Shown here piece after piece: positions 1 through 36,887 of a stretch of 64,000 nucleotides of DNA. The notes under the pieces were generated by a model. It ran no database searches, was not told the origin of the DNA, and was given only the letters and a program-made list of their open reading frames with translations. Every line of letters starts with the position of its first letter. The first letter of the stretch is position 1. The position numbers and the translations under genes are program-made. The DNA comes from Citricoccus zhacaiensis (GTDB lineage: Bacteria; Actinomycetota; Actinomycetes; Actinomycetales; Micrococcaceae): assembly GCF_014645315.1 (NCBI RefSeq), contig NZ_BMLQ01000008.1:124001-188000 (forward strand). Direction: 5' to 3'.

Positions 1-1016
1 GTCTGGAGACGTCCAACCCCGCGGTCCAGACCCTCGGCACCGACCTGGCCATCCTGCAGGACCTGGCCGGCACGGACCTGATCCACACCCACACGTGGTA
101 CGCGAACCTGGCCGGCCACCTCGGCGGCCTCCTCCACGATGTCCCGCATATCCTCTCCGCCCACTCCCTGGAACCCTTGCGGCCCTGGAAGGCCGAGCAG
201 CTCGGCGGCGGCTACCGCGTGTCCTCCTGGGCCGAGGCGACCGCCTATGCCTCGGCGGCGGCCGTCATCGCGGTCTCGGAGGGCATGCGGAAGGACATCA
301 TGGCGGCCTACCCGGATGTGGACCCAGCCAAGGTCCGCGTCGTCCACAACGGCATCGACACCGAACTGTGGACCCCCCAGCACGACGCCGGCGCCCTCGA
401 GCACCATGGCATCGATCCGGGGCGTCCGATGGTCGCCTTCGTCGGCCGGGTGACCCGGCAGAAGGGCGTGCCCTATCTCCTGCGGGCCGCGGCCCGGCTC
501 GCCCCCGAGGTCCAGGTCGTCCTCTGCGCCGGAGCGGCCGACACCCCTGAGCTGGCCGCCGAGGTGGCTGGCCTGGTGGCCGAGTTGAAGGCCGCTCGGG
601 ACGGGGTCACGGTCATCGAGGGCATGCTTCCCCGGGCGGACATCATGCAGATCCTGTCCCACGCCACCGTGTTCGCCTGCCCCTCCGTCTACGAGCCGCT
701 CGGCATCGTCAACCTCGAGGCCATGGCGTGCGGTACGGCCGTGGTCGCCTCCGCCGTGGGCGGGATCCCCGAGGTCGTCCAGCACGGCGAGACCGGCCTT
801 CTGGTGGAACTCGACCAGAGCGCCGACGGCTCCGGGACGCCGCTCGACGAGGAACGCTTCATCACCGACTTCGCCGCCGCCCTCACAACTGTGCTCGAGG
901 ATCCCGCCGAGGCAGCGCGGATGGGCAGGGCCGGCCGGCAGCGGGCGATCGACCACTTCTCCTGGATGGCCATCGCCGATCGGACCCTGGACGTCTACGA
1001 GTCTGTCCTCCGGTGA
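1..1016 (+). CDS. glgA: Glycogen synthase / maltose-1-phosphate synthase, GT4 (5' truncated)
   Basis: The gene enters from outside the window; the reading frame is open from base 3 and about 337 residues are visible of a family that is usually about 400. It resembles the actinobacterial GlgA/GlgM branch of GT4 glycosyltransferases, which use ADP-glucose (or UDP-glucose) to extend alpha-glucan or make maltose-1-phosphate. Visible hallmarks are THTWYANLAGHL near the truncated end, SAHSLEPLRPWKAEQLGGGY, the mid-protein GRVTRQKGV loop, and the C-terminal EPLGIVNLEAMACGTAVV nucleotide-sugar site with its two glutamates. The stop TGA overlaps the GTG of the next gene, so it may be co-transcribed with the glycan cluster. 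Whether it works in glycogen metabolism or in that cluster cannot be decided here. Confidence 0.9.
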   Translation, partial: LETSNPAVQTLGTDLAILQDLAGTDLIHTHTWYANLAGHLGGLLHDVPHILSAHSLEPLRPWKAEQLGGGYRVSSWAEATAYASAAAVIAVSEGMRKDIMAAYPDVDPAKVRVVHNGIDTELWTPQHDAGALEHHGIDPGRPMVAFVGRVTRQKGVPYLLRAAARLAPEVQVVLCAGAADTPELAAEVAGLVAELKAARDGVTVIEGMLPRADIMQILSHATVFACPSVYEPLGIVNLEAMACGTAVVASAVGGIPEVVQHGETGLLVELDQSADGSGTPLDEERFITDFAAALTTVLEDPAEAARMGRAGRQRAIDHFSWMAIADRTLDVYESVLR

Positions 1017-1945
1017 CCGGCCCGCGGGCCCTCGTGGTCGGTTGGCCGTCAGTCCTGCACGGGGAGGCCACGGCCGGCGACGTGCTGGCCATGCGGACGG
1101 TGGAGCACGCCCTGTCCGGGGCCGGGATCCGGCACGACACGGCCTGGAGCCCCGTCATGTGTCCGCCGGGCGGCCTTCTCCTGGATGATGCGGAACCCAG
1201 CCACTACTCGTACCTGATCTTCGCCTGCGGCCCAGCCACGGGGACGCCGCTGGTGGAACTGCATGAACGCTTCTCCCACTGCACCCGGATCGCCATCGGT
1301 GTCAGCGTCGTCGATCCCGCCGACCCCGCCGTGACCGGGTTCCACCGGGTCTTCGCGCGAGACCGCCCGGGATCACCTCCACAGCCGGACCTGGCCACAG
1401 CGGCACCGATGGCACCCGAGGCGCGCCTCCCGCCGGTGCTGGGTGTCTTCCTGACGGCCGGCCAGCGGGAGTACGGGGCTAGGCGCCGTCATGACGCGGT
1501 GAAGGACACGCTGGCGACGTGGCTGTCCCGGATCGATGCCGCCCGGCTCGACCTGGACACCCGGCTCGACCCGCGGGACTGGCGCCTGCCTGCGTCCCCG
1601 GAGCAGCTGCAGTCGGTGATCCAGCGACTGGATGCTGTGGTGACCATGCGCATGCACGGCCTGGTCCTGGCGCTGCGGGCCGGGGTACCGGCCCTTGCCC
1701 TGGACCCGGTGGAGGGTGGCGGGAAGGTGACGGCACAGGCACGGGCCCTGGACTGGCCGGCCGTCCTGTCCGCCGCCGCGGTCTCGGAGTCCGCCCTGGA
1801 CCACCAGCTGGCGTGGTGCCTGTCCGAGGGACGGGCCGTCGCACGGCACAGGGCGTCCTGGATGGGATCCGGACGTGGAGAGGGGAATGATGGCCTAGTC
1901 AATGCAGGGTTGAGCAAGCTCATCCACCAACTGCGTAGCGATTGA
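1013..1945 (+). CDS. Polysaccharide pyruvyl transferase family protein
   Basis: A 310-residue protein starting at a GTG that overlaps the upstream stop by 4 bp. It resembles the polysaccharide pyruvyltransferase (CsaB/WcaK) family, which moves pyruvate from PEP to a sugar as a ketal. The best evidence is the C-terminal RMHGLVLALRAGVPALALD block, the family's conserved R-x-H-x-x-x-x-A-x-x-x-G-x-P-x-x-A signature, at about residues 205-225. The N-terminal half (ALVVGWPSVLHGEATAGDVLAM) fits the gly-rich first Rossmann-like domain. No signal peptide or membrane segment is seen. Sitting at the head of a run of glycosyltransferases and a carbamoyltransferase, it probably decorates the same glycan. 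The acceptor is unknown. Confidence 0.72.
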   Translation: MTGPRALVVGWPSVLHGEATAGDVLAMRTVEHALSGAGIRHDTAWSPVMCPPGGLLLDDAEPSHYSYLIFACGPATGTPLVELHERFSHCTRIAIGVSVVDPADPAVTGFHRVFARDRPGSPPQPDLATAAPMAPEARLPPVLGVFLTAGQREYGARRRHDAVKDTLATWLSRIDAARLDLDTRLDPRDWRLPASPEQLQSVIQRLDAVVTMRMHGLVLALRAGVPALALDPVEGGGKVTAQARALDWPAVLSAAAVSESALDHQLAWCLSEGRAVARHRASWMGSGRGEGNDGLVNAGLSKLIHQLRSD

Positions 1946-2001
1946 CACGGGCCCTCCAAACCGTGTCCTCCGTTACAGGTTTCTTATGCAAGACTGACGG
2001 C

Positions 2002-3639
2002 GTGCGCTACTTGGGAATCAATGCAACGTTCCATGATCCGGCTGCCGCTGTGGTGGTCAACGGCGAAGTCGTGGCAGCCGCGGAGGAGGAGAGGTTCTCC
2101 CGCCGCAAGCACGGAAAGCGGCCGGTGCCGTTCTCCGCGTGGGAGCTGCCAGAGCAGTCCATGCGCTGGGTGCTGGCCGAGGCCGGGATCACCGCCGAGG
2201 ACCTGGACGGGGTGGCGTACTCCTTCGACCCGGAGATCGCCGTGGACATCCCCGACGACCCCTATGACCACGTCCGGCTGGACTATGTGCGCCGGGCCCC
2301 GGGATTCATCGCCGAAGCCCTGCCCGGCCTGGACCCGTCCAAGGTCACGTACGTCCAGCACCACGTGGCCCACGCCGCCTCCTCCGGGCTCGCCGGCCCC
2401 TACCGTACCGGTGCGGTGCTCGTCTCGGACGGCCGGGGAGAGGGCCACTCCCACCTGGCCGGCGAGTACGTCGACGGTGAGCTGTCCATCCTGGCCCGTC
2501 AGGAGCTGCCCGATTCCCTGGGCCTGGTCTACGAATCCCTGACCGACCACCTCGGCTTCCTGCGCTCGTCCGACGAGTTCAAGGTCATGGCCTTGGCCTC
2601 CTACGGGACTCCGCGCTTCCTGGACGAACTCCGCGACTACGTCCACGCCACCGGGGACGGCGGTTTCACCGCCCGTGCCCCGGAGTGGGAGCAGTTCGCC
2701 CCCCGGCGGATCGATGACGGCACCTGGGGCGGCGCCCACGCCGACCTCGCGGCCTCCGTCCAGTGCGTGGTCGAGGAGACCCTGGTGGAACTGGCCCGGT
2801 GGCTGCGGGAGCAGACCGGCCAGCGCGTGCTGACCATGGCCGGGGGTACCGCCCTCAACTGCGTGGCCAATTCCCGGATCTGGCGCGAGGCCGGCTTCGA
2901 CGACGTCTGGGTCCAGCCGGCGTCGGGGGACTCCGGAACGGCGCTGGGCGCGGCCCTGACCCTGGCCCAGCGGGCCGGTGACCTCGCCGCGCCGGAGCCG
3001 ACGGCGGCCCTGGGGCGCAGCTGGGATGATGACGAGCTGGCCCAGTGGCTCACCACCGCGCAGGTGCCCTTCACCACGCCCGGGTCCCGCGAGGCCTTGG
3101 CCGCAGAGGTGGCCGGCATCCTCGAACAGAACGGCGTCATCGCCTGGTTCGACGGCCGCAGCGAGTTCGGGCCCCGGGCGCTCGGGTTCCGGTCGCTGCT
3201 GGCGAACCCGATGCATGCCGAGAACCTGGAGCGGCTCAACGATGTGAAGGGCCGGGAGCAGTTCCGCCCGGTGGCCCCCATGGTGCTGGAGGACCGCGCC
3301 GCCGAGATCTTCAGCGGCGGTCCCATCCCCAGTCCCTACATGCTCTTCACCCACGACGTCGCCCCGGAGTGGCGCGACCGCATCCCCACCGTCACCCACG
3401 TGGACGGCTCCGCCCGCATCCAGACGGTCAATGACCGGGACAACCCCGGCATCGCCGCCCTGTTGCGTGCCTTCAACGAACGCACGGGCGTCCCGGTGGT
3501 GGTCAACACCAGTCTGAACACGGCTGGACGCCCGATGGTGGACGACCCCCGAGACGCCCTCGAGTTGTTCGGTTCGGCGCCCGTGGCCGCGCTGGTCCTG
3601 GGTCCGCACCTGATCCGCCGGGCGGGGTTCTTCGCATGA
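2002..3639 (+). CDS. Carbamoyltransferase, NodU/CmcH family
   Basis: A 545-residue O-carbamoyltransferase with the two-domain layout of NodU, CmcH and TobZ. The N-terminal Kae1-like ASKHA domain opens with YLGINATFHDPAAAVV and carries the metal-binding HHVAHAASS at about residue 119. The C-terminal YrdC-like domain carries RSEFGPRALGFRSLLANP at about 383-400 and VVVNTSLNTAGRPMV. Family members make carbamoyl-adenylate from carbamoyl phosphate and ATP, then transfer the carbamoyl group to a sugar or antibiotic hydroxyl. I chose GTG 2002 because homology begins there. An in-frame TTG at 1942 would add 20 unconvincing residues. The 3' end overlaps the next gene by 4 bp. It likely carbamoylates a sugar in the cluster's glycan. 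Confidence 0.9.
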   Translation: MRYLGINATFHDPAAAVVVNGEVVAAAEEERFSRRKHGKRPVPFSAWELPEQSMRWVLAEAGITAEDLDGVAYSFDPEIAVDIPDDPYDHVRLDYVRRAPGFIAEALPGLDPSKVTYVQHHVAHAASSGLAGPYRTGAVLVSDGRGEGHSHLAGEYVDGELSILARQELPDSLGLVYESLTDHLGFLRSSDEFKVMALASYGTPRFLDELRDYVHATGDGGFTARAPEWEQFAPRRIDDGTWGGAHADLAASVQCVVEETLVELARWLREQTGQRVLTMAGGTALNCVANSRIWREAGFDDVWVQPASGDSGTALGAALTLAQRAGDLAAPEPTAALGRSWDDDELAQWLTTAQVPFTTPGSREALAAEVAGILEQNGVIAWFDGRSEFGPRALGFRSLLANPMHAENLERLNDVKGREQFRPVAPMVLEDRAAEIFSGGPIPSPYMLFTHDVAPEWRDRIPTVTHVDGSARIQTVNDRDNPGIAALLRAFNERTGVPVVVNTSLNTAGRPMVDDPRDALELFGSAPVAALVLGPHLIRRAGFFA

Positions 3640-5285
3640 GCGGCCTGAGAGCGCAGGGTCCTTACGCCCTCGTCATCCCCTCGGTCGGCCGCCCCTCCCT
3701 GGACCGGCTCCTGGAGACCGTGGCCGCCCTGGACACCGACGCATCCCACCCCGGCCCGGTGGAGATCGTCGTGGTGGACGACCGCCGCGAACCGGCGGAG
3801 ACTGGCACCCGGCTCGCCCCCCTGATGCCCACGGTGGATGGGGAACCCGTGCGCGTGGTGCGCGGCTACGGCCGCGGCCCCGCAGCGGCGCGCAACCGCG
3901 GCTGGCGGGCCGTCGACGATTCCGTGGAATGGATCGCGTTCCTGGACGATGACGTCGAGCTGCCGACCACCTGGGCCCGCGATCTGGCCACCGACCTGGC
4001 CGCCTGTCCACCCGAGGTGGCCGCCAGTCAGGGCCGGATCACAGTGCCGTTGCCGACGGACCGGGCACCCACCGACTGGGCGCGCAACACCGCCTCACTG
4101 CAGGAGGCCGATTGGGCGACGGCCGACATGGCCTACCGCCGGCGTGTGCTCGAGGAGGTCGGGGGACTGGACGAGCGCTTCCCGCGGGCCTACCGCGAGG
4201 ACGCCGACCTGGCCCTGCGGGTCCGTCTCGCCGGCTACCGGTTGGTGCGCGGCCACCGCAACATCCTCCACCCCGTCCGCCCGGCGGACGACTGGGTCAG
4301 CCAGCGCGTGCAGGCAGGAAACGCCGACAACGCCTTGATGCGCCGGCTGCACGGCCCGCACTGGCGTGAACAAGCCCAGGCACCCGCCGGGGCCTTCGGC
4401 TGGCACGTGGCCACGACGACGGCCGCGGCCCTTGCGGCGATCGGCACCGTGGGCTGGATGGCGGGCTCGCGCGGCGCCGGCCGGATCGCCGGAGCCGGCA
4501 TCGTGGCCTGGTCCGCCCTGTACGGGCGTTTCCTCGGCAGGAGGCTAGCCCCCGGACCGCGACCGGGAGACCCTGAGTTCCCGGCGGAGTTGCGCCGGAT
4601 GGCCTTGACCAGTGCGACCATCCCGCCGAGCGCGGTCCGGCACCGAGTCCGCGGCTGGATGCAGCACCGGTCCACCGGCCCCTGGCCCGTCCGCCCCCGC
4701 GCCGTGCTCTTCGACCGGGACGGCACCCTCGTCCACGATGTGCCCTACAACGGAGACCCGGACCAGGTCGATCCCGTCGATGGCGCCCGGGGCCTCCTCA
4801 AGCGCGTCCGCGCTGCTGGGCTGGGCACAGCCGTCGTCACCAACCAGTCGGGAGTGGCCCGCGGACTGGTCTCCCGGGACCAGGTGGATGCCGTCAACGA
4901 ACGGATCGACCGGCTGCTCGGCCCCTTCGACTCCTGGCAGGTCTGTCCCCACGGACCGGCGGAGAACTGCCCCTGCCGCAAGCCGCGGCCGGGCATGGTC
5001 CTCGCCGCCGCGAAGGCCCTGGGCGTACGCCCCGAGGAATGCGTGCTCATCGGCGACATCGGTGCGGACATCGAGGCCGCCCAGTCCGCCGGAGCCCGAT
5101 CGGTGCTGGTGCCGACCCACGTGACCCGGCCCGAGGAGGTTTCCGATGCCCCGGTCACCGCGCCGGACCTGGCCACCGCCGTCGAACTCGTGCTCGACTG
5201 GTCCTCCGGCCGGCAGCAGGCCCCGGCCGCCACCCTGACTTCGACCCTGACCTCGACCCAGGACGGTGAACAATCCACCACATGA
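3636..5285 (+). CDS. Fusion: GT2 glycosyltransferase + GmhB-like HAD heptose bisphosphate phosphatase
   Basis: A 549-residue natural fusion. Residues about 10-230 are a GT-A family 2 glycosyltransferase: VIPSVGRPSLDRLLETV, the nucleotide-binding VVVDDRR, the metal-binding FLDDDVELP and a second-half REDADLALRVRLAGY. A hydrophobic stretch at about 255-300 may be a membrane anchor. From about residue 357 an HAD phosphatase of the GmhB/HisB-N type follows: motif I FDRDGTLVHD, motif II VVTNQSGVARG, the zinc-loop cysteines in CPHGPAENCPCRKPRPGM, and motif IV LIGDIGADIEAA. GmhB removes the 7-phosphate of D-glycero-D-manno-heptose 1,7-bisphosphate. With HldE and a SIS domain downstream, a heptose role is more likely than histidinol-phosphate phosphatase. 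It overlaps both neighbours by 4 bp. Confidence 0.88.
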   Translation: MSGLRAQGPYALVIPSVGRPSLDRLLETVAALDTDASHPGPVEIVVVDDRREPAETGTRLAPLMPTVDGEPVRVVRGYGRGPAAARNRGWRAVDDSVEWIAFLDDDVELPTTWARDLATDLAACPPEVAASQGRITVPLPTDRAPTDWARNTASLQEADWATADMAYRRRVLEEVGGLDERFPRAYREDADLALRVRLAGYRLVRGHRNILHPVRPADDWVSQRVQAGNADNALMRRLHGPHWREQAQAPAGAFGWHVATTTAAALAAIGTVGWMAGSRGAGRIAGAGIVAWSALYGRFLGRRLAPGPRPGDPEFPAELRRMALTSATIPPSAVRHRVRGWMQHRSTGPWPVRPRAVLFDRDGTLVHDVPYNGDPDQVDPVDGARGLLKRVRAAGLGTAVVTNQSGVARGLVSRDQVDAVNERIDRLLGPFDSWQVCPHGPAENCPCRKPRPGMVLAAAKALGVRPEECVLIGDIGADIEAAQSAGARSVLVPTHVTRPEEVSDAPVTAPDLATAVELVLDWSSGRQQAPAATLTSTLTSTQDGEQSTT

Positions 5286-6394
5286 CGCGCATCCTCGCGG
5301 TACGACTCGATTCGGACGGCGACGTCCTGCTGACCGGGCCCGCGATCCGGGTCCTGGCCAAGATCGGCACGGTGGACCTGCTCGCCTCCCCGTCCGGAGC
5401 CGCCGCGGCGCGGTTGCTGCCCGGCGTCCACACGGTCCTGGAATTCGACGCCCCGTGGTCCGGCTTCCGGCCGCCGGCGGTCGACACGCGGGCCACGCTG
5501 GAGCTGGTCGAGCGGTTGCGCGTCACGGGGTACGACCGGGCGGTCATCTTCACCTCCTTCCACCAGAGCCCCCTGCCGATGGCCCTGCTGGCCCGGATGG
5601 CCGGGATCGAACACATCGTGGGCACGAGTACGGACTACCCCGGGTCGTTGTTGGACGTGCGATTGAAGCGCGCCGACCCGCCGGGTGGCGGCCACGAGGT
5701 CGAGGCCGCCCTGGAGGTCGCGGTCGCCGCCGGTGCCCCTCGGCCGGAGCACCCGATCTTGGGCGTGCGCCGCCCCCTGCCACCACCACCCACTCAACTG
5801 CCCGCTGCCCTGCGCTCGGGCGGCTACGTGGTCCTGCACCCGGGCGCGTCCGTGCCGGCACGCGGACTGCGGGCGGACCACGCCGGGGCCATCGCGGCGG
5901 CCCTGGCCGCTGCCGGCCACGCCGTCGTCGTCACCGGGGGACCCGCCGAACGCGAACTGGTGGCCGAGACGGTGGCCCTGGCGCGCGGACGCCACCCGGA
6001 TGCCACGGTGCTGGACCTGGCCGGGGCCACAGACCTGGCCGGCCTGGCCTCGGTGCTCGAGTCCGCGGACTGCACGGTGGTCGGCAACACCGGCCCGGCC
6101 CACCTCTCGGCCGCCGTCGGCACACCGGTCGTCTCCCTGTTCTCTCCGGTGGTCCCCGCCGAGCGATGGCGGCCCTACGGGGTCCCGGTCCGTCTGCTCG
6201 GCGACCAGCACGCCCCGTGCCGGGACAGCCGAGCCCGTGACTGCCCCGTCCCCGGACACCCGTGCCTGAGTGGAGTCTCCGGCGCCGACGTGGTCGCCGC
6301 CGTGGCCGAGCTCACCCAGCCCACCGACCAACCGGTCCGGGCCGCCCACGAGGCCGGCTGCGGACCCCTGAGCACCTCCCGAGGAGACCGATGA
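5282..6394 (+). CDS. GT9 heptosyltransferase-like glycosyltransferase
   Basis: A 370-residue GT-B enzyme of family 9 (ADP-heptose:LPS heptosyltransferase, WaaF/WaaC-like). It opens with ILAVRLDSDGDVLLTGPAI, the GT9 start motif that includes the catalytic aspartate. Further on come VVLHPGASVPARGL (phosphate/nucleotide loop, about 180-195), VVVTGGPAERELV and VVGNTGPAHLSAAVGTPVVSLFSP, the ADP-heptose site of the C-terminal domain. The tail has a cysteine-bearing segment (APCRDSRARDCPVPGHPC) like the CxxxxC tail of many GT9 proteins. The ATG overlaps the previous stop. With an ADP-heptose pathway in the same operon, ADP-heptose is the likely donor. The acceptor is unknown, since Gram-positives have no LPS core. 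Confidence 0.88.
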   Translation: MTRILAVRLDSDGDVLLTGPAIRVLAKIGTVDLLASPSGAAAARLLPGVHTVLEFDAPWSGFRPPAVDTRATLELVERLRVTGYDRAVIFTSFHQSPLPMALLARMAGIEHIVGTSTDYPGSLLDVRLKRADPPGGGHEVEAALEVAVAAGAPRPEHPILGVRRPLPPPPTQLPAALRSGGYVVLHPGASVPARGLRADHAGAIAAALAAAGHAVVVTGGPAERELVAETVALARGRHPDATVLDLAGATDLAGLASVLESADCTVVGNTGPAHLSAAVGTPVVSLFSPVVPAERWRPYGVPVRLLGDQHAPCRDSRARDCPVPGHPCLSGVSGADVVAAVAELTQPTDQPVRAAHEAGCGPLSTSRGDR

Positions 6395-7350
6395 GAATCC
6401 TGATCTGGCATGTGCACGGCTCCTGGATGACCGCGTTCGTCCAGGGCCAGCACGACTACCTGCTGCCGGTGGACGACGACCGGGGACCTGACGGCCGCGG
6501 CCGGGCCCAGACCTGGGACTGGCCGGCCTCTGCGCGGGAGATGACCGCTGCACATCTGGCCGGTGAACAACCGGACCTGGTGGTGCTGCAACGGCCGCAC
6601 GAGGCGGAGCTGCTGGAGAGCTGGACCGGACTGCGGGCTGGGATCGACGTCCCGGCCGTCTACCTGGAGCACAACGCGCCAACCGGGACCGCGATGGCCT
6701 CCGGCCACCCCTATGCCGACCAGGACGCCATCCCGGTCGTGCACGTCACCCACTTCAACCGCATCATGTGGGACACCGGCACGGCCCGCACCGAGGTGAT
6801 CGAGCACGGCGTTCCCGATCCCGGCCACCTGTACACCGGGGAGCAGGCCTCCCTGGCCGTCGTGGTGAACGAACCGGTGCGCCGCACCCGCGTGGCGGGC
6901 ACGGACCTGGTCCTGCAGTTGTCCCGGGACCTGCCCGTGGAGGTCTACGGCATGGGCATGGACCACCTGGCCGAGGTCGCACCTTGGCTCGCGGGCGGCC
7001 TGCACGAGAATTACCGGCAGTCCGAGTTGCACCGGGCCCTGGCCGCACACCGCGTGTACTTCCACCCGTACCGGTGGACCAGCCTGGGGCTGGCCCTGCT
7101 CGAGGCCATGACGCTCGGCATGCCCGTCTTGGCCCTGTCCACCACCGAGGCGCCTCGGGCCGTGCCGCCCTCCGCCGGCCTGCTCAGCAACGACCCGGCC
7201 GAACTGGCGCACCGTGGCCGGCAGTGGCTTCAGGACCCCGGACTCGCGGCCCAGGCCGGGGCCGCGGCCCGTGCCCACGCGCTGGACCGGTACGGTCTTC
7301 AGAGGTTCCTGGCCGACTGGGATGCGTTGATCGGGCGGGTGGTCGCATGA
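6391..7350 (+). CDS. GT4-like glycosyltransferase
   Basis: A 319-residue protein whose ATG overlaps the previous stop. It has a GT-B fold: MRILIWHVHGSWMTAFVQG at the start, a VYLEHNAPTG acceptor-side loop near residue 90, and a donor site HPYRWTSLGLALLEAMTLGMPVLA at about 225-248. The spacing of that block matches GT4, although the usual E-x7-E is shortened. It lacks a signal peptide and membrane segments. The N-terminal third, with HDYLLPVDDDRGPDGRGR, is unusual for GT4. I recall similar proteins beside hldE in other actinobacteria, but I cannot confirm that here. Its substrate is unknown. Confidence 0.75.
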   Translation: MRILIWHVHGSWMTAFVQGQHDYLLPVDDDRGPDGRGRAQTWDWPASAREMTAAHLAGEQPDLVVLQRPHEAELLESWTGLRAGIDVPAVYLEHNAPTGTAMASGHPYADQDAIPVVHVTHFNRIMWDTGTARTEVIEHGVPDPGHLYTGEQASLAVVVNEPVRRTRVAGTDLVLQLSRDLPVEVYGMGMDHLAEVAPWLAGGLHENYRQSELHRALAAHRVYFHPYRWTSLGLALLEAMTLGMPVLALSTTEAPRAVPPSAGLLSNDPAELAHRGRQWLQDPGLAAQAGAAARAHALDRYGLQRFLADWDALIGRVVA

Positions 7351-9254
7351 GCGCCGACCGGAGGGACAGCAAGCCGATGGACACCGGGCCCCTGGATATA
7401 GCGCTCGTGTCCGAGCACGCCTCCCCGCTGGCCGCCCTCGGCGGCGTGGACGCCGGTGGCCAGAACGTCTTCGTGGCAGCCCTGGCCGCCCAGCTGGGTC
7501 GCCGCGGTCACCGGATCCGTGTCTACACCCGGCTCGACGATGCGGCCCTGCCCGAGCAGGTGGAAGCCGCGCCCGGCGTGACCGTCGTGCACGTGCCCGC
7601 CGGTCCGGCCGAACAGCTACCCAAGGACGAGCTCGCGCCCTACATGGACGAGTTCGCCCGCTGGATGTCCGCGCAGTGGCGTCGGGAGGGGGTGCCGGAC
7701 CTCGTCCACGCGCACTTCTGGATGTCCGGGATGGCCGCGACGGCGGCCGCGGAGGCCGCCCGCATCCCGGCCGTCCAGACCTTCCATGCCCTGGGCTCGG
7801 TCAAGCGCCGGCACCAGGGATTGGCGGACACCAGCCCGTCCGGCCGGCTCGGGATCGAGGCCCGCCTCGTGGAGCAGAACGAGCTGGTCCTGGCCACCTG
7901 CCGCGACGAGGTGGACGAGCTCATGGGCCTCGGCGCCGACCCGGACCGGGTCCGCATCGTGCCCTGTGGCGTGGACGCCGGGGCCTTCGCCCCGCCCGTG
8001 GACGCCGGTCCCGGACGCGCAGCCGGCGAGCCGGTGCATCTCGTGGCGTTGGGCCGGATGGTCGAGCGCAAGGGCGTGGACGTCGTCGTGCGTGCCCTCG
8101 CCCAGGTTCCCGAGGCTCACCTGACCGTGGCCGGCGGACCGGACCGCGCCGTGCTCGGCGAGGACCCCGAGGCCCGGCGCCTGCTGGCGCTGGCGGAGGA
8201 GTACGGGGTCGCAAACCGGCTCACCCTGACCGGCCGGGTCGGCCGCGACGAGGCCGCCGGGCTGCTGGCCTCGGCCGACATCGTCACCTGCACCCCGTGG
8301 TACGAACCCTTCGGCATCGTGCCGCTGGAGGCCATGGCCTGTGGCCGTCCGGTGGTCGGCTCAGCCGTGGGGGGTCTGCTGGACAGCATCGACGACGGCA
8401 CCACCGGCCTGCTGGTCCCACCCCGGGACGTGGACGCCACGGCCACGGCCATCCGCCGTCTCACCGAGGACCCGGAGCTTGCCGCCTGCATGGGCCGGGC
8501 CGGCCGGGAACGGGTGCAGCGACTGTTCAGTTGGGAGCGGGTGGCCGAGCTCACCGAGGAGGCCTACCGCGAGGCTCAGAGCGGGTACGCACAGTCGCAT
8601 CCAAGCCGGCCTGGAGCCACCCGCCGGCTGCTGGCCGAGCACCGGGAAGACCTGGACCAGGCGCTGACCGCCCTCGAGGACGACGCCGACGTGCTGGACC
8701 GGTGGGGCCGCCGCCTGTCCGAGTTGCTGGGTGGCGGTGGACGCGTGCTGGCCGCCGGCAACGGCGGCAGCGCGGCCGAGGCCCAGCACTTCACCGCCGA
8801 GCTGGTCGGCCGCTTCCAGGGCGAGCGGCGCCCCCTGGCGGCCGTGTGCCTCTCGGCGGAGACCTCGTCCCTCACGGCGATCGTCAACGACTACGGCGCC
8901 GACGAGGTGTTCGCCCGCCAGGTCCAGGCCCACGGGCGGGCGGGCGACGTGCTCGTGCTGCTCTCCACCAGTGGGACCAGTCCCAACGTGCTGGAGGCGG
9001 CGCGCCGCGCCCGGCAGATCGGGATGCGCGTCTGGGCGCTGACCGGTCCGGGACCCAACCCGCTGGCCGAGCTGGCCGACGAGGCCGTGTGCGTGCCGGG
9101 GCCGTCCACCTCGGTGGTCCAGGAGGCTCACCTGGTCCTGTTGCACGCACTCTGTGCTGTGATGGACGAAGGATTCAACCGTTGCCAACCGGGCCCGGAT
9201 ACCGTTCCAGGCACGCACAGGACCAACAGGACCAACAGGGAGGACACGCCATGA
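7347..9254 (+). CDS. Fusion: GT4 glycosyltransferase + GmhA-like SIS phosphoheptose isomerase
   Basis: A 635-residue fusion. Residues about 15-410 are a GT4 enzyme of the sucrose-phosphate-synthase/MshA type: GGVDAGGQNVFVAALA, HAHFWMSGMAATAA, LGRMVERKGVDVVV and EPFGIVPLEAMACGRPVV. From about residue 427 a SIS domain of the GmhA type follows, with GNGGSAAEAQHFTAELVGRF (about 471) and the phosphate-binding LLSTSGTSPNVLEAARRA. GmhA converts sedoheptulose-7-phosphate to D-glycero-D-manno-heptose-7-phosphate. The ATG overlaps the upstream stop and the 3' end overlaps hldE, so this heptose step is translated next to the next enzyme of the path. The GT half may act on the same sugar, which is inference. 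DnaA initiator-associating protein DiaA is a SIS relative, but the neighbours favour GmhA. Confidence 0.88.
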   Translation: MSADRRDSKPMDTGPLDIALVSEHASPLAALGGVDAGGQNVFVAALAAQLGRRGHRIRVYTRLDDAALPEQVEAAPGVTVVHVPAGPAEQLPKDELAPYMDEFARWMSAQWRREGVPDLVHAHFWMSGMAATAAAEAARIPAVQTFHALGSVKRRHQGLADTSPSGRLGIEARLVEQNELVLATCRDEVDELMGLGADPDRVRIVPCGVDAGAFAPPVDAGPGRAAGEPVHLVALGRMVERKGVDVVVRALAQVPEAHLTVAGGPDRAVLGEDPEARRLLALAEEYGVANRLTLTGRVGRDEAAGLLASADIVTCTPWYEPFGIVPLEAMACGRPVVGSAVGGLLDSIDDGTTGLLVPPRDVDATATAIRRLTEDPELAACMGRAGRERVQRLFSWERVAELTEEAYREAQSGYAQSHPSRPGATRRLLAEHREDLDQALTALEDDADVLDRWGRRLSELLGGGGRVLAAGNGGSAAEAQHFTAELVGRFQGERRPLAAVCLSAETSSLTAIVNDYGADEVFARQVQAHGRAGDVLVLLSTSGTSPNVLEAARRARQIGMRVWALTGPGPNPLAELADEAVCVPGPSTSVVQEAHLVLLHALCAVMDEGFNRCQPGPDTVPGTHRTNRTNREDTP

Positions 9255-10714
9255 GTGCGCGGATCGTCGTGGTGGGGGATGTGTTGCTGGACCGAGACAT
9301 CACGGGCAGCTCCGAACGGCTGAGCCCGGACGCCCCGGTCCCCGTGGTGGACGTGCAGCACCTTCACGCCAGTCCGGGTGGTGCAGGCCTGGCCGCACTG
9401 TTGTGCGCCGGACGGGCCGGCGGCCTGCCCGGCGAGCCGCCCACCGTGGTCCTGGTGGCCCCGCTGGCCGAGGACGACGCCGCGGCCGAATTGCGCGCGG
9501 AACTGGCCGGTATCGACATCCACGCCCTGGGACATGACGGTGGCACCCGGACCAAGACCCGGGTCCGTAGTGCCGGTCAGACCCTGGTGCGCATCGACGA
9601 CGGCGGGCCGGGCACGCCGCTGGACGTCGACGCCGGTGCTCTCGCCGCCGTGCTGGGCGACGCCGACGTCATCCTGGTCTCCGACTACGGCGGTGGCATC
9701 ACCCGGGACGAGTCCATACGCCGGGCTCTCACCGAGACGGCCGCCCGCGTGCCGATGGTCTGGGACCCGCATCCTCGCGGCGGTGACCCGGTGCCGGGAT
9801 GCACGGTGGTGACCCCCAACCTGGCCGAGGCCCGCGCGGCGTTGGGCCGGCTGGGCACGGGGCCGGCCGAGCCGCACGAGCCGGGGGCCGAGGTCCCGGA
9901 CGACAGCCTGGCGGAGGCCCTGCGCGTGGGCTGGGGCGCCCGGTCCGTGGCGGTGACCGCCGGCGCCTGCGGGGCGTTCCTCGCCACCTCCGGCACCGCC
10001 GAGCTCCTGCCGACCGTGCCGGTTGATTCCTCCGATCCCTGTGGAGCCGGGGACCGGTTCGCGGCCGCCGTCGCCGTCCAGCTGGCCGCCGGCGGATCGG
10101 TGCTCCGCTCGGTCGAGGCCGCCGTCGCGGCCGCCGCCCAATGGGTGGAGGCCGGCGGTGCCGCCGCCTTCCGCGACGGACGCATCGGTCCGGACGGTCC
10201 CGCGGCCACCCGGCGTTCCCCGCACCGCCCGCTCGCCCTGGACCCGCAGGAAGCGGCCATCCACGCGGTAGCCGCGACCCGGGCCCGCGGTGGCACCGTG
10301 GTCGCCACGGGGGGATGCTTCGACGTGCTGCACCCCGGCCACCTCGAGACGCTGCGCCGGGCCCGCGACCTGGGAGACGTGCTGGTGGTCCTGCTCAACT
10401 CTGACGACTCGGTCAGCCGCCTCAAGGGCCCGAGCCGGCCAGTGGTGGGTCAGCAGGACCGGGCGACCCTGCTCATGGGGCTGCGCGATGTCGACGGAGT
10501 GCTCATCTTCGACGAGGACAACCCGTGCGCCGCCCTGGACCGGCTGCGCCCGGACATCTGGGTCAAGGGCGGGGACTACACCCCGGACCTGTTGCCTGAG
10601 GCGCCACTGGTCCGCAGCTGGGGCGGACGCGTGGAGGTGCTGCCCTACGTGCCCGGTCATTCCACCACCGGCATCGTGGATCGCATCACCGCAGGGAACG
10701 TGGATGCCCACTGA
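9251..10714 (+). CDS. hldE: HldE: heptose-7-phosphate kinase / heptose-1-phosphate adenylyltransferase
   Basis: A 487-residue bifunctional enzyme of usual length. The N-terminal PfkB/ribokinase domain starts with VVVGDVLLDRDITG, has the sugar-side SPGGAGLAALL and the kinase signature DPCGAGDRFAAAVA at about residue 260, including the catalytic aspartate. The C-terminal nucleotidyltransferase begins near residue 350 with GGCFDVLHPGHLETLRRAR (HxGH motif at about 360) and continues with LNSDDSVSRLKGPSRP. The enzyme phosphorylates D-glycero-beta-D-manno-heptose-7-phosphate at C1 and, after dephosphorylation by GmhB, forms ADP-D-glycero-D-manno-heptose. It overlaps its neighbours by 4 and 11 bp. 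It anchors the interpretation of the cluster as heptose-based. Confidence 0.95.
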   Translation: MSARIVVVGDVLLDRDITGSSERLSPDAPVPVVDVQHLHASPGGAGLAALLCAGRAGGLPGEPPTVVLVAPLAEDDAAAELRAELAGIDIHALGHDGGTRTKTRVRSAGQTLVRIDDGGPGTPLDVDAGALAAVLGDADVILVSDYGGGITRDESIRRALTETAARVPMVWDPHPRGGDPVPGCTVVTPNLAEARAALGRLGTGPAEPHEPGAEVPDDSLAEALRVGWGARSVAVTAGACGAFLATSGTAELLPTVPVDSSDPCGAGDRFAAAVAVQLAAGGSVLRSVEAAVAAAAQWVEAGGAAAFRDGRIGPDGPAATRRSPHRPLALDPQEAAIHAVAATRARGGTVVATGGCFDVLHPGHLETLRRARDLGDVLVVLLNSDDSVSRLKGPSRPVVGQQDRATLLMGLRDVDGVLIFDEDNPCAALDRLRPDIWVKGGDYTPDLLPEAPLVRSWGGRVEVLPYVPGHSTTGIVDRITAGNVDAH

Positions 10715-11834
10715 CATCCCGGAACCCTATACCGCCGCCTGGCTCGCCGCCAGCAGGCAGGGCGGGGTTCCCAGCCTCGCCGCCAGCAGGCAGGGCGGGG
10801 TTCCCAGCGCACCGGGGGAGCCGGCTGTACCGGCCGGCGGCACACCGGTGACCCCGGGCCCGGAGGATGTCCTCGTACTCCGTGCCCTGGGCCTGGGCGA
10901 CGCGCTGACCGGCGTCGCCGCCCTCCGCGGGATACGGCGACGGTACCCGGACCGAAGGCTCGTGCTGGCGGGTCCCGCTGTGACCGGTCAGTTACTCCGG
11001 GACCTGGGCTTCGTGGACGAGGTGCTCCCGCTCCCCGGACTGGTTCCGCTGCCGGAGTGCAGGCCCGGATCGGTGGCCGTGAACCTGCACGGACGGGGCC
11101 CCGCCAGCCACCGACTGCTGCAGCAGGCACGGCCAGCGCGGCTCATCGCCTACGCCGCCCCAGAGGCCGGGCACGCCGGGCCGGACTGGCGTGCCGACGA
11201 ACACGAGGTGGACCGCTGGTGCCGCGTGGTGCGGCAGGCCGGAGGCGAGTGCTCCCGCGAGGACCTGCGGCTGCGCCCCCGGGCCGCCGCCGACGCCGAA
11301 CGGCGACACCGGGACGGTACCGGACCGATCCTGGTGCACCCGGGGGCGGCCTCGGCCTCTCGACACTGGCCGGTGGAGCGTTGGCGCCAGGTGACCGCCG
11401 CCCTGGCGGCGGACGGTCACCGGGTTCTTGTCACCGGATCAGCAGCCGAGGCCGGTCTGGGCCACGCCGTGTCCACGGGACTGGCCGGCGTCGAGGACCA
11501 CACCGGTGGCCAGGGGCTGAGTGAGCTCTCCGCGATGGTGCGTGATGCCGCACTCGTCGTGAGCGCGGACACCGGAGTCGCCCACCTGGCCACCGGCTGG
11601 TGCGTTCCCTCCGTGGTGCTGTTCGGCCCGGTGCCCCCGGCACGGTGGGGGCCGGCGATCGATCCGGACCTGCACACCGTCCTCTGGCACGGCGACCCTG
11701 ACGCCGGCGCGTGGGGCGACCCGCACGGCGACACCCTCGACGCGCTGCTGGAGAAGGTGTCCGTCACCGAGGTGCTGGAGGCCGCGCGCACCCACCTCCA
11801 CACCGACCCTGTCCAACGAGAGGATCCATCGTGA
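10704..11834 (+). CDS. GT9 heptosyltransferase-like glycosyltransferase (second copy)
   Basis: A 376-residue GT9-type protein beginning at an ATG 11 bp inside hldE. The catalytic core starts late, at [21 protein letters not shown] (about residue 53). It also has [38 protein letters not shown] and [25 protein letters not shown], the donor-site block with its conserved D-T-G. The extra N-terminus of about 50 residues holds an exact 11-residue tandem repeat ([11 protein letters not shown] twice) encoded by a 33-bp duplication. A downstream start would remove it, but no good ribosome site is evident there. The likely donor is ADP-heptose, by neighbourhood. It overlaps the SDR gene by 4 bp. Confidence 0.86.
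10743..10808 (+). repeat. Perfect 33-bp in-frame tandem duplication in the second GT9 gene
   Basis: Positions 10743-10775 and 10776-10808 are identical, each beginning CTCGCCGCCAGCAGG. The unit is 11 codons, so the duplication keeps the frame and gives [11 protein letters not shown] twice in the poorly conserved N-terminus. Perfect identity, including third positions, suggests a recent slippage event. Confidence 0.95.
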
Positions 11835-12850
11835 ACCCTGAGAACCGCCAGAACGATACGGGAGCCGGACCACAGCGCCCGATCCGCCGCGCCGTCGTCA
11901 CCGGAGGTGCGGGCTTCCTCGGCAGCCACCTGTGCACCGAGTTGCGTCGGCGCGAGGTGGAGGTGGTCTGCTTGGACAACTTCCTCACGGGCAATGCCGT
12001 CAACATCGAGCACCTGATCGGCGATCCCGGCTTCCGGCTGGTCCAGTGCGATGTCACGGACTACATCCATGTCCCCGGCGAGGTGGACCTCGTGCTGCAC
12101 TTCGCCTCACCGGCCTCCCCGATCGACTACCTGAAGCTGCCCATCCACACCCTCAAGGTCGGCTCGATCGGTACCCTGCACGCCCTGGGCCTGGCCAAGG
12201 ACAAGGGGGCCCGATTCATCCTCGCCTCCACCTCGGAGGTCTACGGGGATCCGCAGGTGCATCCCCAGTCCGAGGACTACTGGGGACACGTCAACCCGGT
12301 GGGGCCACGCGGCGTGTACGACGAGGCCAAGCGCTTCGCCGAGGCCATGACGGTGGCCTACCGGGGGCAGCACGCGGTGGACACGGGCATCGTCCGGATC
12401 TTCAACACCTTCGGCCCGCGGATGCGCCCCTACGACGGCCGGGCGATCCCCACCTTCATCCGGCAGGCGCTGGCCGGCGAGCCGTTGACCGTCACGGGTG
12501 ACGGCGAACAGACGCGCTCGGTCTGCTACGTCTCCGATCTGGTGCGCGGGATCCTGGCCCTGGCATGGAGTGACCATTCCGGGCCGATGAACATCGGCAA
12601 CCCCCACGAGCTCTCCGTGCTGCAGATCGCCCGGGACGTCGTGGCCGCCACCGGATCCGACTCGCCGATCGAGTTCATCGACCGCCCGGTGGACGATCCC
12701 ATGGTCCGCCGCCCGGACACGACCCTGGCCTCCCACGAGCTGGACTGGACCCCGGAGGTGCCCTGGACCGAGGGGCTCGCGCGCACCGTGGAGTGGTTCC
12801 GCACGGCTGTCAACGAGGACAGCCTTGAGGCGGCCACCCGCCAGGACTGA
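11831..12850 (+). CDS. UDP-glucuronate decarboxylase (UDP-xylose synthase)-like SDR
   Basis: A 339-residue extended SDR. The NAD-binding [11 protein letters not shown] is at about residue 26 and the catalytic tyrosine-lysine is in [11 protein letters not shown] at about 162. The segments [28 protein letters not shown] and [19 protein letters not shown] are typical of UDP-glucuronate decarboxylase (UXS) and set it apart from HldD-type ADP-heptose epimerases. The reaction would be UDP-glucuronate to UDP-xylose and CO2. It is the last gene of the plus-strand cluster, starting at a GTG after GAGAGGAT. A related NDP-sugar 4,6-dehydratase or epimerase is the main alternative. A terminator-like hairpin follows. 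Confidence 0.82.
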
Positions 12851-12866
12851 CCGTGGGTCGAGGGGA

Positions 12867-12894
12867 GCCGTCGTCCCGCAGCCGGAACGACGGC
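12867..12894. terminator. Hairpin between converging glycan genes
   Basis: GCCGTCGT at 12867-12874 pairs perfectly with ACGACGGC at 12887-12894. It lies in the 51-bp gap between two convergent genes and could stop transcription both ways. There is no T-run, as is usual in high-GC actinobacteria. Confidence 0.5.
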
Positions 12895-12901
12895 GGCCGG
12901 C

Positions 12902-14716: not shown

Positions 14717-14833
14717 GACTGTCTCCCTTGGCTTGCCCTGCAGATGACTCCGAGCCTAGGGGGTACTCCGTGTACCGGGCCACCGAGGGGCCGGCCGGAC
14801 GACCTTCCGCGCTGGCCTCCCTGCTGCTCTGGC

Positions 14834-17842: not shown

Positions 17843-17897
17843 AGTAAGCCCCGTCACGTTGTATCCACGGCCCGCCGTGAAACCCGAAGGGATCACC

Positions 17898-19277: not shown

Positions 19278-19281
19278 GCAC

Positions 19282-20658: not shown

Positions 20659-20674
20659 GGTGGAACGTGAGACC

Positions 20675-21643
20675 ATGACCCCCCTGAGCTCGAGCTACCG
20701 GGCCGCCCTGTCCATGGCAGCCAAGGACGCGCTGGTCAGACGGCGCCGCCCACAGCAGCTGCCGGGACGCACCGTGGTGGTCCACGACCACGAGATCAGT
20801 GCCGAGCTCGCCGCCCGGTACGCCCGGATGTTCCACCGGAACGGTCCGGTGCTGGACCCCACCGACCTACCCTCGGTGCTCGTGCACGTCGCCTCCTTCC
20901 CGGCGGCCATGGAACTCATGGCCGATCCGGACTTCCCCCTGCCACTGCTCGGCATGGTCCACCTCCGCAACCACGTGGTGCACCATGCCCCGGTACCGGC
21001 CGGCACCCCGGTGGAGGTGGCCGCCTCGGCCACCCGCCTGAGCCCCCATCCATCGGGCACCACCGTGGACCTGGTCGTCACCGTCCACGGGCCGGCACGC
21101 GTCAACCGCCGAGTCGACGACTCCGTCAACGGTCCCACCGGTGGCACCGGGGAGCTGCAGCTATTGTGGGAGGGCACGTCCACGTACCTGGCCGCCGGAG
21201 TCCACCTGCCGGCCCACGAGCGCCCGGCCACGGCCGGCCACCCGCCGTTCACGGCACCACAGCTGACCGCACAGTGGCGTCTCCCCGCGTCCACCGGACG
21301 GGAGTATGCCGCCGTGTCCGGGGACTTCAATCCGATCCACCTGAACCCGGTGACCGCCAAGCTCCTGGGGCAGAAGGGCATGATCGCCCACGGGATGTAC
21401 CTGGCCGGTCGGATGCTCGCGGGCCGGGAACCGGCGGGTGCGGGCCACGAGTGGGAGATCTCCTTCGCCACCCCGGTGCTGCTCCCGGGGACGGTGTCCC
21501 TGGGCGTCGTCCACGCGGATCACTGCAACGCTGAGGTCACCACGGAGGTCACGGCGTGGAACGGCCGCACCGGAAGGCCGCACTTCACCGGCTCGATCAC
21601 GGTCCCGGGCTCAGGTCCGGGACAGAGATCGGGTCCGGGGTAG
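20675..21643 (+). CDS. MaoC-like (R)-hydroxyacyl dehydratase, HtdX-like
   Basis: A 322-residue double hot-dog protein. The catalytic hydratase 2 motif is in the C-terminal hot dog: GDFNPIHLNPVTAKLLGQKG, then AHGMYLAGRML, giving the Asp-His pair. The N-terminal hot dog is degenerate. I prefer ATG 20675, with GGTGGAA 9 bp upstream; an in-frame GTG at 20660 would add five residues. The enzyme dehydrates (R)-3-hydroxyacyl thioesters or hydrates enoyl thioesters, which fits after the FabG4-like reductase. The order thiolase-FabG4-MaoC resembles mycobacterial fadA2/fabG4/htdX. The C-terminal end is Gly/Pro rich and probably disordered. Confidence 0.85.
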   Translation: MTPLSSSYRAALSMAAKDALVRRRRPQQLPGRTVVVHDHEISAELAARYARMFHRNGPVLDPTDLPSVLVHVASFPAAMELMADPDFPLPLLGMVHLRNHVVHHAPVPAGTPVEVAASATRLSPHPSGTTVDLVVTVHGPARVNRRVDDSVNGPTGGTGELQLLWEGTSTYLAAGVHLPAHERPATAGHPPFTAPQLTAQWRLPASTGREYAAVSGDFNPIHLNPVTAKLLGQKGMIAHGMYLAGRMLAGREPAGAGHEWEISFATPVLLPGTVSLGVVHADHCNAEVTTEVTAWNGRTGRPHFTGSITVPGSGPGQRSGPG

Positions 21644-36798: not shown

Positions 36799-36879
36799 CC
36801 TCTGAAGGACGGACCGTCCACCGGCCGGAGCCATCGTTACGCCACCAGCCAAGCGCACCACAGCCTTCGCGGACAGGCC

Positions 36880-36885
36880 TAGGAT
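36880..36885 (+). promoter_or_regulatory. -10 box of the arc promoter
   Basis: TAGGAT ends 56 bp before the arc GTG and 2 bp before the iron box, placing the start of transcription at about 36892, inside that box. There is no clear -35. Confidence 0.45.
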
Positions 36886-36887
36886 GG

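What the first reader, a model, noticed from the sequence alone, without database searches (positions are those of the whole stretch)
3636..11834. Complete ADP-heptose pathway and two GT9 enzymes in a Gram-positive
GmhA-like SIS, GmhB-like HAD and bifunctional HldE, all with conserved active-site motifs, plus two heptosyltransferase-like GT9 proteins lie in one coupled operon. This is the precursor route of LPS inner core in Gram-negatives, but an actinobacterium has no LPS. The cluster predicts a heptose-bearing wall glycan, lipoglycan or exported glycolipid. Similar gene sets exist in some other actinobacteria, as far as I recall, but I know of no defined product.
Basis: partly seen in the sequence, partly recalled or inferred. 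Interest (0 to 1): 0.75.

Follow-up and report, generated by a model that had tools for sequence, protein, structure and literature searches.

The report
Actinobacterial carbamoyl-heptose glycan operon
A 14-kb gene block in a Gram-positive bacterium encodes a sugar-building line related to the one that makes the core of Gram-negative endotoxin; the same block recurs in much the same order in other actinobacteria, often beside a stress-response regulator, and its product is unknown.

Summary
Window ~1041-14822 is a 13.8-kb island, absent at the same site in 3 of 8 genomes of the genus. It holds a carbamoyltransferase, a GT2-GmhB fusion, GT9a, GT4, a GT4-GmhA fusion, HldE, GT9b, a UDP-glucuronate decarboxylase and a double GT2. 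In 62 HldE loci from Actinomycetota most of the set recurs (GmhA 56, GT9a 53, carbamoyltransferase 39). The genome has no LpxC and no HldD over cut-off.

"All active-site motifs conserved" is only partly right. The operon HldE belongs to a clade (53 of 67 tree rows) whose kinase lacks the Asn of canonical GGAAN; GT9a has Asn (54 of 54 rows) where WaaC has Asp261.

New link: a SigB/F/G-type sigma gene lies within 12 kb of HldE in 16 of 54 genomes (0.55 expected). The window's own genome has none at that score.

Best reading: an accessory, cytosolic line for a carbamoylated heptose-containing oligosaccharide, stress-linked in many hosts. No exporter or polymerase belongs to the conserved block, so a wall polymer is not established; a soluble glycoside is a close rival. 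Product and activities are untested.

The parts
1013..1945 (+). polysaccharide pyruvyl transferase-like protein; first gene of the island, found in only 8 of 62 loci
   Evidence: PF04230 2.5e-09, only residues 193-231 matched
1942..3639 (+). NodU/TobZ-type O-carbamoyltransferase (start codon uncertain)
   Evidence: PF16861 3e-63, PF02543 1.3e-48; PDB carbamoyltransferase 7xb6 7.3e-86, then TobZ and GdmN; 39 of 62 loci
3636..5285 (+). fusion: GT2 glycosyltransferase (about residues 1-340) + GmhB-type HAD phosphatase (about 341-549)
   Evidence: HAD Asp pair and Cys/His/Cys/Cys zinc site; fused in 33 loci
5282..6394 (+). GT9a, heptosyltransferase-fold enzyme with Asn269 at the WaaC Asp261 position
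   Evidence: PF01075 2.2e-22; model pLDDT 90.2, Z 30.9 to WaaF and 28.3 to WaaC
6391..7350 (+). GT4a glycosyltransferase, acceptor unknown
   Evidence: model pLDDT 91.3, generic GT4 matches; 54 of 62 loci
7347..9254 (+). fusion: GT4m (sucrose-phosphate-synthase/MshA-like, about residues 1-415) + GmhA-type phosphoheptose isomerase; fused in 12 loci, mostly neighbours elsewhere
   Evidence: GT4m: 6kih 254 bits, 3c48 196 bits; GmhA part 156 bits to 1tk9; His66, Glu70, Gln177, His185 in 52 of 52 rows
9251..10714 (+). HldE-like kinase/nucleotidyltransferase, type I clade (kinase motif GGAGL, not GGAAN)
   Evidence: PRK11316 271.3 bits against cut-off 521; rfaE_dom_II 173.1 against 181.5; tree; motifs
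10704..11834 (+). GT9b, heptosyltransferase-like, Asp66 and Asp289 kept (start uncertain; my gene caller put it at 10848)
   Evidence: PF01075 2.1e-19; 2gt1 WaaC 5.2e-09
11831..12850 (+). UDP-glucuronate decarboxylase (UDP-xylose synthase); not an HldD epimerase
   Evidence: 2b69 355 bits; TIGR02197 62.6 bits against cut-off 274.6
12902..14716 (-). tandem GT2 glycosyltransferase closing the island, convergent to the operon
   Evidence: PF00535 two stretches, 2.2e-43
1041..14822 (.). extent of the island: DNA on both sides matches an uninterrupted site in a same-genus genome (flanked by a glycogen synthase gene and an acyl-CoA oxidase gene)
   Evidence: flank genes

Best explanation
The island is an accessory, self-contained cytosolic line for a carbamoylated, heptose-containing oligosaccharide. 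GmhA turns sedoheptulose 7-phosphate into heptose 7-phosphate; the HldE kinase and GmhB make heptose 1-phosphate; the HldE nucleotidyltransferase makes NDP-heptose (probably ADP), left in the D,D form because no HldD was found. GT9b, and probably GT9a, transfer heptose to an acceptor; the GT4 and GT2 enzymes add other sugars, one possibly xylose from the UDP-glucuronate decarboxylase; the carbamoyltransferase caps one residue. In many actinobacteria the operon lies beside a SigB/F/G-type sigma gene, so the glycan is likely a stress-phase component. Its destination is unresolved; I lean slightly to the cell envelope by a housekeeping exporter. Shown: gene content, order, conservation, GT9a and GT4a folds, island boundaries, sigma-gene proximity. 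Inferred: every reaction, the product, its location and its role.
For: Domain assignments. Order kept where both genes occur: NodU>GT2n 38 of 38, GmhB>GT9a 46 of 50, GT4a>GT4m 50 of 54, GmhA>HldE 51 of 56. HldE at E<=1e-40 in 48 of 396 Actinomycetota genomes at least 90% complete. Catalytic residues of GmhA, GmhB and the HldE nucleotidyltransferase invariant or nearly so. GT9a fold match to WaaF and WaaC well above TibC and GT1-type enzymes. No HldD over cut-off, no LpxC. Sigma gene near HldE in 16 of 54 genomes against 0.55 expected, 7 of 24 families against 0.31. Streptomyces sp. CA-256286 operon flanked by STAS, PP2C, ANTAR, CBS and CsbD genes. Carbamoylated heptose has a precedent in Pseudomonas LPS core (PMC8005017, passages).
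Against: The HldE kinase lacks the GGAAN Asn, and GT9a the WaaC Asp261 equivalent, so canonical heptose chemistry is not assured. HldE, GmhA, GmhB and both GT9 proteins score below NCBIfam's equivalog cut-offs; the HAD part passes only broader subfamily models, one of them named histidinol-phosphate phosphatase domain. The order is looser in places: GT9a>GT4a 39 of 52, HldE>GT9b 13 of 50, sdr0>GT9b 25 of 41. The carbamoyltransferase is missing from 23 of 62 loci, some of them cut by contig ends. The window's genome has no SigB/F/G gene at 190 bits or more, so the stress link is not shown for this organism. A SigF-like promoter pattern was not clearly enriched upstream (7 of 58 operon leaders, 23 of 312 controls). 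Identity correlations between operon genes are only moderate (Spearman 0.08-0.79), so parts may have been exchanged.
Confidence: 0.55

Rival explanations
1. Soluble product: the operon makes an intracellular heptose glycoside or oligosaccharide on a small phosphorylated acceptor, started by the SPS/MshA-like GT4m, used as a stress protectant or cofactor; nothing is exported.
For: GT4m is closest to sucrose-phosphate synthase 6kih (254 bits) and 3c48 (196 bits; MshA as recalled) among solved chains, enzymes with soluble phosphorylated acceptors (recalled). None of the recurring operon families is an exporter or polymerase. Hydropathy flags only single borderline segments (1.62-1.72 against a threshold of 1.6) in GT9a, GT4a, GT9b and the double GT2 of the window; those of GT9a and GT4a fall inside helices and strands of the globular models. 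Sigma-gene proximity.
Against: LPS-core GT9 enzymes act on lipid acceptors and their exporter is coded elsewhere (recalled), so a missing exporter proves little. GT4m is below the MshA cut-off (254.8 against 462.5 bits), so the acceptor type is a guess.
Confidence: 0.33
2. Exported wall polymer, lipoglycan or glycolipid.
For: GT9 precedent in LPS core; in Rhodococcus ruber YYL a gmhD (GDP-heptose gene) deletion is cited as lacking the capsule (PMC12298843, passage). The island also carries UDP-xylose synthase and, here, a pyruvyl transferase-like gene.
Against: No polymerase, flippase or wall ligase among the recurring families; the island is absent from 3 of 8 same-genus genomes, so it is not a core wall component.
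Confidence: 0.42
3. A small-molecule natural product with a carbamoylated heptose-type sugar, in the manner of septacidin or the bleomycin disaccharide.
For: ADP-heptose feeds septacidin in Streptomyces (PMC11573728 and PMC11461863); bleomycin-type clusters pair a carbamoyltransferase with rfaE- and GT-like genes (recalled, not checked here).
Against: No scaffold enzyme (NRPS, PKS or the like) among the domains identified in the island or among the 25 commonest of 114 neighbour families; the operon recurs more widely and uniformly than product clusters usually do (the comparison is recalled).
Confidence: 0.1
4. The HldE-type enzyme and GT9a no longer handle D-glycero-D-manno-heptose but a related phosphorylated sugar; the 'heptose' label is carried over from homology. 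This cuts across the other rivals.
For: Kinase Asn replaced in all 53 type I tree rows and GT9a Asp to Asn in 54 of 54 rows; seven same-family genomes and G412 carry a second, GGAAN-type HldE in the same locus, as if the two had different jobs.
Against: GmhA keeps its four metal and catalytic residues, GmhB its zinc site, and the nucleotidyltransferase half is near its family cut-off (173.1 of 181.5 bits).
Confidence: 0.25

Closest known systems
ADP-heptose pathway and WaaC/WaaF/WaaQ heptosyltransferases of Gram-negative LPS inner core
   Same: GmhA, GmhB and HldE homologues with mostly conserved catalytic residues; GT9a fold close to WaaF and WaaC
   Different: no LpxC, no HldD over cut-off; type I HldE kinase motif; GT9a Asn for Asp261; fusions to GT2 and GT4; frequent carbamoyltransferase partner
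Carbamoylated heptose II of Pseudomonas LPS core (putative carbamoyltransferase WapO, PA5005)
   Same: a carbamoyltransferase coded with heptose and heptosyltransferase genes (PMC8005017, passages)
   Different: outer-membrane LPS; phosphorylated heptoses; WapO was not compared by sequence here
GDP-heptose gene gmhD of Rhodococcus ruber YYL
   Same: an actinobacterial heptose gene cited as needed for surface polysaccharide (PMC12298843 and PMC12786566, passages)
   Different: GDP-activated branch; its genes were not compared here
Septacidin pathway of Streptomyces fimbriatus
   Same: actinobacterial use of ADP-heptose (PMC11461863, passage; PMC11573728)
   Different: small-molecule antibiotic; its genes were not compared here
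MshA and cyanobacterial sucrose-phosphate synthase (GT4)
   Same: GT4m is nearest to 6kih and 3c48 among solved chains
   Different: below the MshA cut-off; acceptor unknown; often next to or fused with GmhA

Membership tests
ADP-beta-D-manno-heptose biosynthesis (GmhA, HldE, GmhB) | GmhA metal and catalytic residues (His, Glu, Gln, His; residue roles recalled) | tested here: met
   52 of 52 rows
ADP-beta-D-manno-heptose biosynthesis (GmhA, HldE, GmhB) | GmhB HAD Asp pair and zinc site (roles recalled) | tested here: met
   D20 and D22 in 49 of 51 rows (2 gaps), C97/H99/C105/C107 in 51 of 51
ADP-beta-D-manno-heptose biosynthesis (GmhA, HldE, GmhB) | HldE nucleotidyltransferase HxGH and Lys residues | tested here: met
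   H361, H364, K392, K439 in 59 of 59 rows
ADP-beta-D-manno-heptose biosynthesis (GmhA, HldE, GmhB) | HldE kinase GGAAN motif (sugar-contact role of the Asn recalled from PfkB kinases) | tested here: not met
   window GGAGL; Leu in 53, Asn in 5, Met in 1 of 59 rows at that column; aligned to GGAAN of 4e84
ADP-beta-D-manno-heptose biosynthesis (GmhA, HldE, GmhB) | NCBIfam equivalog cut-offs for HldE | tested here: not met
   271.3 against 521 (whole), 124.8 against 345 (kinase), 173.1 against 181.5 (nucleotidyltransferase)
ADP-beta-D-manno-heptose biosynthesis (GmhA, HldE, GmhB) | HldD 6-epimerase (needed only for the L,D form) | tested here: not met
   best 91.5 bits against cut-off 274.6 in the window's genome
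ADP-beta-D-manno-heptose biosynthesis (GmhA, HldE, GmhB) | in vitro formation of NDP-heptose | not testable with these tools
   needs enzyme assay
GT9 heptosyltransferases | GT9 domain and fold | tested here: met
   PF01075 in both; GT9a model Z 30.9 to WaaF; GT9b was not modelled
GT9 heptosyltransferases | Asp13 of WaaC (catalytic role recalled) | tested here: met
   GT9a D14 in 52 of 54 rows (2 gaps), GT9b D66 in 49 of 49
GT9 heptosyltransferases | WaaC Asp261 equivalent | tested here: inconclusive
   kept in GT9b (D289, 49 of 49); Asn in GT9a (N269, 54 of 54)
GT9 heptosyltransferases | donor is ADP-heptose | not testable with these tools
   needs enzyme assay
Lipopolysaccharide biosynthesis | lipid A pathway (LpxC) | tested here: not met
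   no match in the genome; found in 4 of 14 control genomes, E. coli included
Promiscuous heptose nucleotidyltransferases (STTR5 motif of Tang and colleagues) | (F/L)xxGRSTT | tested here: not met
   window YVPGHSTT; at the Arg position R in 49, H in 5, Y in 5 of 59 rows; first position Y in 44, L in 5, F in 3 (motif from PMC11573728)
NodU/TobZ O-carbamoyltransferases | N- and C-terminal carbamoyltransferase domains with conserved His residues | tested here: met
   H140, H141, H144 in 39 of 40 rows, 1 gap

The most novel reading that the evidence does not exclude
Actinobacteria own an old operon, gained and lost as an island, that makes a general-stress glycoside of a class not described so far: a carbamoylated heptose (or heptose-like) oligosaccharide built in the cytosol on a soluble phosphorylated acceptor, with a divergent HldE kinase that acts on an altered substrate, switched on by SigB/F/G-type sigma factors.
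Probability: 0.2. Interest if true: 0.82.

Novelty: new variant of a known kind. Interest (0 to 1): 0.62.

Why it matters
L-glycero-D-manno-heptose was described as confined to Gram-negative bacteria in a 2008 structure-database survey (PMC2543016, passages), and authors of the NDP-heptose work write that heptoses may play more roles in their producers than are known (PMC11573728). Here is one defined, widely recurring gene set in which that can be tested. ADP-heptose is also a potent agonist of the host receptor ALPK1 (PMC11573728), so a Gram-positive source would bear on how specific that alarm is. The sigma-gene proximity gives a concrete condition (general stress) under which to look for the product.

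Tried and rejected
Rejected: the SDR at 11831 as HldD; it is a UDP-glucuronate decarboxylase. Rejected: GT2n as a clear membrane enzyme; by Kyte-Doolittle 28 of 39 relatives have no segment over threshold and 11 have one. Not supported: a SigF-type promoter upstream of the operon, 7 of 58 leaders against 23 of 312 controls; looser pattern 8 of 58 against 27 of 312 (consensus recalled). Inconclusive: co-inheritance of the operon genes by identity correlation. Unreliable: tblastn of HldE against plasmids gave no match, yet the Streptomyces and Nonomuraea records found with GT9a hold HldE homologues; I treat as a false negative. The genome-contig scan with HldE alone found only 8 loci and is not a measure of distribution. 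Ten literature searches: nothing in the titles and abstract openings listed described this operon; two searches found no paper, several lists were cut (for example 25 of 137), and the library lacks most subscription journals. GT4a fold search gave only generic GT4 matches. In the GT9a fold list, chloroplast NDH-complex chains (Z 23-25) rank between WaaC and TibC; not followed up.
Full report
What is there. The window is part of contig 8 of a 3.69-Mb genome. The closest named records found with HldE are Micrococcus sp. Bu38 and Citricoccus sp. WCRC_4 (which may leave out the window's own record), so I take it for a relative of these. From 1013 to 12850 nine + strand genes follow each other with overlapping stops and starts (the starts of the second and eighth are uncertain), closed by a convergent gene on the - strand: pyruvyl transferase-like, NodU/TobZ-type carbamoyltransferase, GT2-GmhB fusion, GT9a, GT4a, GT4m-GmhA fusion, HldE, GT9b, UDP-glucuronate decarboxylase, and tandem GT2.

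It is an island. Five of eight genomes of the genus (own genome included) have this HldE; three (G001, G003, G004) do not, apart from one weak kinase match in G004. In those three the glycogen synthase gene and the acyl-CoA oxidase gene that flank the block (named) lie side by side, with 77, 107 and 125 bases between the matched parts. Flank comparison puts the edges near window 1041 and 14822 in the closest of them. The block is therefore accessory in this genus, not a core wall pathway.

It recurs widely. HldE of this kind was found at E<=1e-40 in 48 of 396 Actinomycetota genomes, drawn evenly and asked to be at least 90% complete. I read 63 regions: 20 from near relatives, 3 of the 8 loci, and 40 regions around matches; one (L094) gave no labelled HldE, leaving 62. 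Presence: GT4m and GmhA 56, GT4a 54, GT9a 53, GmhB 52, GT9b 49, a small SDR (sdr0) 47, carbamoyltransferase 39, GT2n 39, UDP-glucuronate decarboxylase 21. These include weak homologues (down to about 30% identity); some loci are cut by contig ends, two genomes give two loci each, and loci were chosen for having HldE, so the counts are not independent. Order, where both genes occur: NodU>GT2n 38 of 38, GT2n>GmhB 37 of 39 (33 loci carry them fused), GmhB>GT9a 46 of 50, GT9a>GT4a 39 of 52, GT4a>GT4m 50 of 54, GT4m>GmhA 46 of 54, GmhA>HldE 51 of 56, HldE>sdr0 38 of 48, sdr0>GT9b 25 of 41, HldE>GT9b 13 of 50. Named carriers of much of the set include Streptomyces sp. CA-256286 (on a plasmid), Nonomuraea gerenzanensis, Lentzea atacamensis and Marinitenerispora sediminis (short contig).

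Are the enzymes intact? GmhA (His66, Glu70, Gln177, His185), GmhB (Asp pair, zinc site) and the nucleotidyltransferase half of HldE are invariant or nearly so. Two positions depart from the canonical enzymes across the family. (a) The HldE kinase reads GGAGL, GGAAL or, once, GGAGM, where the solved Burkholderia kinase 4e84 (source organism recalled) and E. coli HldE read GGAAN. In a tree of 67 rows, 53 type I sequences, the window's among them, lie on one side of a fully supported branch and 14 GGAAN sequences, E. coli included, on the other (groups were named by the motif; midpoint root; E. coli on a long branch; fragments and GmhA-HldE fusions left out). Seven genomes of the window's family, and G412 of another family, carry one of each type a few kb apart. 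(b) GT9a has Asn269 in 54 of 54 rows at WaaC Asp261, while GT9b keeps Asp289 in 49 of 49; at WaaC Lys192 GT9a has Arg in 54 of 54, GT9b Arg in 43 and Lys in 4 of 49. GT9a still has the heptosyltransferase fold (Z 31.0 to 3tov, 30.9 to WaaF, 28.3 to WaaC, 23-25 to chloroplast NDH-complex chains, 18.3 to TibC, about 14-16 for GT1-type enzymes and epimerases). In the motif that marks heptose nucleotidyltransferases of broad NTP use ((F/L)xxGRSTT, PMC11573728, part 1 of 2 read), the window has His for the key Arg; 49 of 59 rows have the Arg, but Tyr is commonest at the first position (44 of 59). HldE, GmhA, GmhB and the GT9 proteins all score below NCBIfam's equivalog cut-offs, so names are by homology.

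What is absent. No HldD over cut-off, hence D,D-heptose if heptose at all; no LpxC; no GT9 matches other than these two. None of the recurring families is an exporter, polymerase or ligase. Of 304 neighbour genes I gave 117 to Pfam: taken from the 150 nearest the operon, 33 of which I left out without a set rule. The commonest families were sigma-70 regions (7 members) and topoisomerase IB (4); MFS transporters had 2. Only the top 25 of 114 families are shown, so a rarer exporter could have been missed.

A stress link. In 54 HldE-bearing genomes that I picked (not all of them), a SigB/F/G-type gene scoring 190 bits or more lies within 12 kb of HldE in 16, against 0.55 expected from gene number and genome size; by family, 7 of 24 against 0.31 expected, and none of 200,000 simulations reached 7. 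The cut-offs of 190 bits and 12 kb were chosen after seeing the matches, and genome sizes are rounded. On the Streptomyces plasmid the operon is flanked by STAS, PP2C, ANTAR, CBS and CsbD genes; their stress role is recalled. Against: the window's own genome has no such sigma gene at 190 bits or more, and a SigF-like promoter pattern is not clearly enriched. A Frankia gene annotated as ADP-heptose:LPS heptosyltransferase was reported up under salt stress (PMC5563000, passages); whether it belongs to this family is unknown.

How it most likely works. Sedoheptulose 7-phosphate is taken by GmhA, phosphorylated by HldE, trimmed by GmhB and activated by HldE; GT9b and probably GT9a transfer it; GT4 and GT2 enzymes and UDP-xylose complete an oligosaccharide; the carbamoyltransferase caps it. 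A carbamoyl group on heptose has a precedent in Pseudomonas LPS core (PMC8005017, passages). Destination is open. For the envelope: GT9 precedent, and the cited loss of capsule in Rhodococcus ruber on deleting the GDP-heptose gene gmhD (PMC12298843, passage). For a soluble product: no export genes in the block, and GT4m nearest to sucrose-phosphate synthase and MshA. I give about 0.42 to the envelope, 0.33 to a soluble product and 0.1 to a secreted natural product; the altered-substrate question cuts across these.

Novelty. Heptose-activating enzymes in actinobacteria are not new as such (septacidin; the cross-kingdom survey summarised in PMC11573728 and PMC11461863). In the listings of ten searches of the held library (named in Tried and rejected) I saw no description of this operon, its fusions, the type I HldE or the sigma-gene proximity. 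I call it a new variant of a known kind.

Noticed in passing
L043, L044, L046-L050 and L064 (relatives): Loci with two different full-length HldE genes a few kb apart, one type I and one GGAAN type II, separated by a small SDR, an aldehyde dehydrogenase and mostly a GT9 gene; suggests two heptose-type sugars in one pathway.
   Followed up: partly
L040:8820-11036 and L072 (gene 7): GmhA fused to HldE in one protein, the tridomain arrangement mentioned in PMC11573728.
   Followed up: no
flanks of HldE loci (tally): Bacterial topoisomerase IB genes are the second commonest neighbour family (4 of 117 scanned neighbours); not explained.
   Followed up: no
L059 (Candidatus Mycobacterium methanotrophicum): The operon looks fragmentary: carbamoyltransferase in two pieces and only partial GmhB, GmhA and HldE matches.
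   Followed up: no
window 36735-38651: Proteasomal ATPase domains, suggesting an actinobacterial proteasome region downstream; unrelated to the finding.
   Followed up: no
window 17859-21643: Thiolase, short-chain dehydrogenase and MaoC dehydratase in a row, near an acyl-CoA oxidase gene: a fatty-acid module next to the island.
   Followed up: no
G000:C5:307544-330287: Five of the eight weak epimerase/SDR matches of the HldD search cluster here; perhaps a surface-polysaccharide locus of this genome.
   Followed up: no
L102 (Streptomyces sp. CA-256286 plasmid): The operon lies on a large linear plasmid typed as mobilizable, with a transposase gene on either side of the region.
   Followed up: partly
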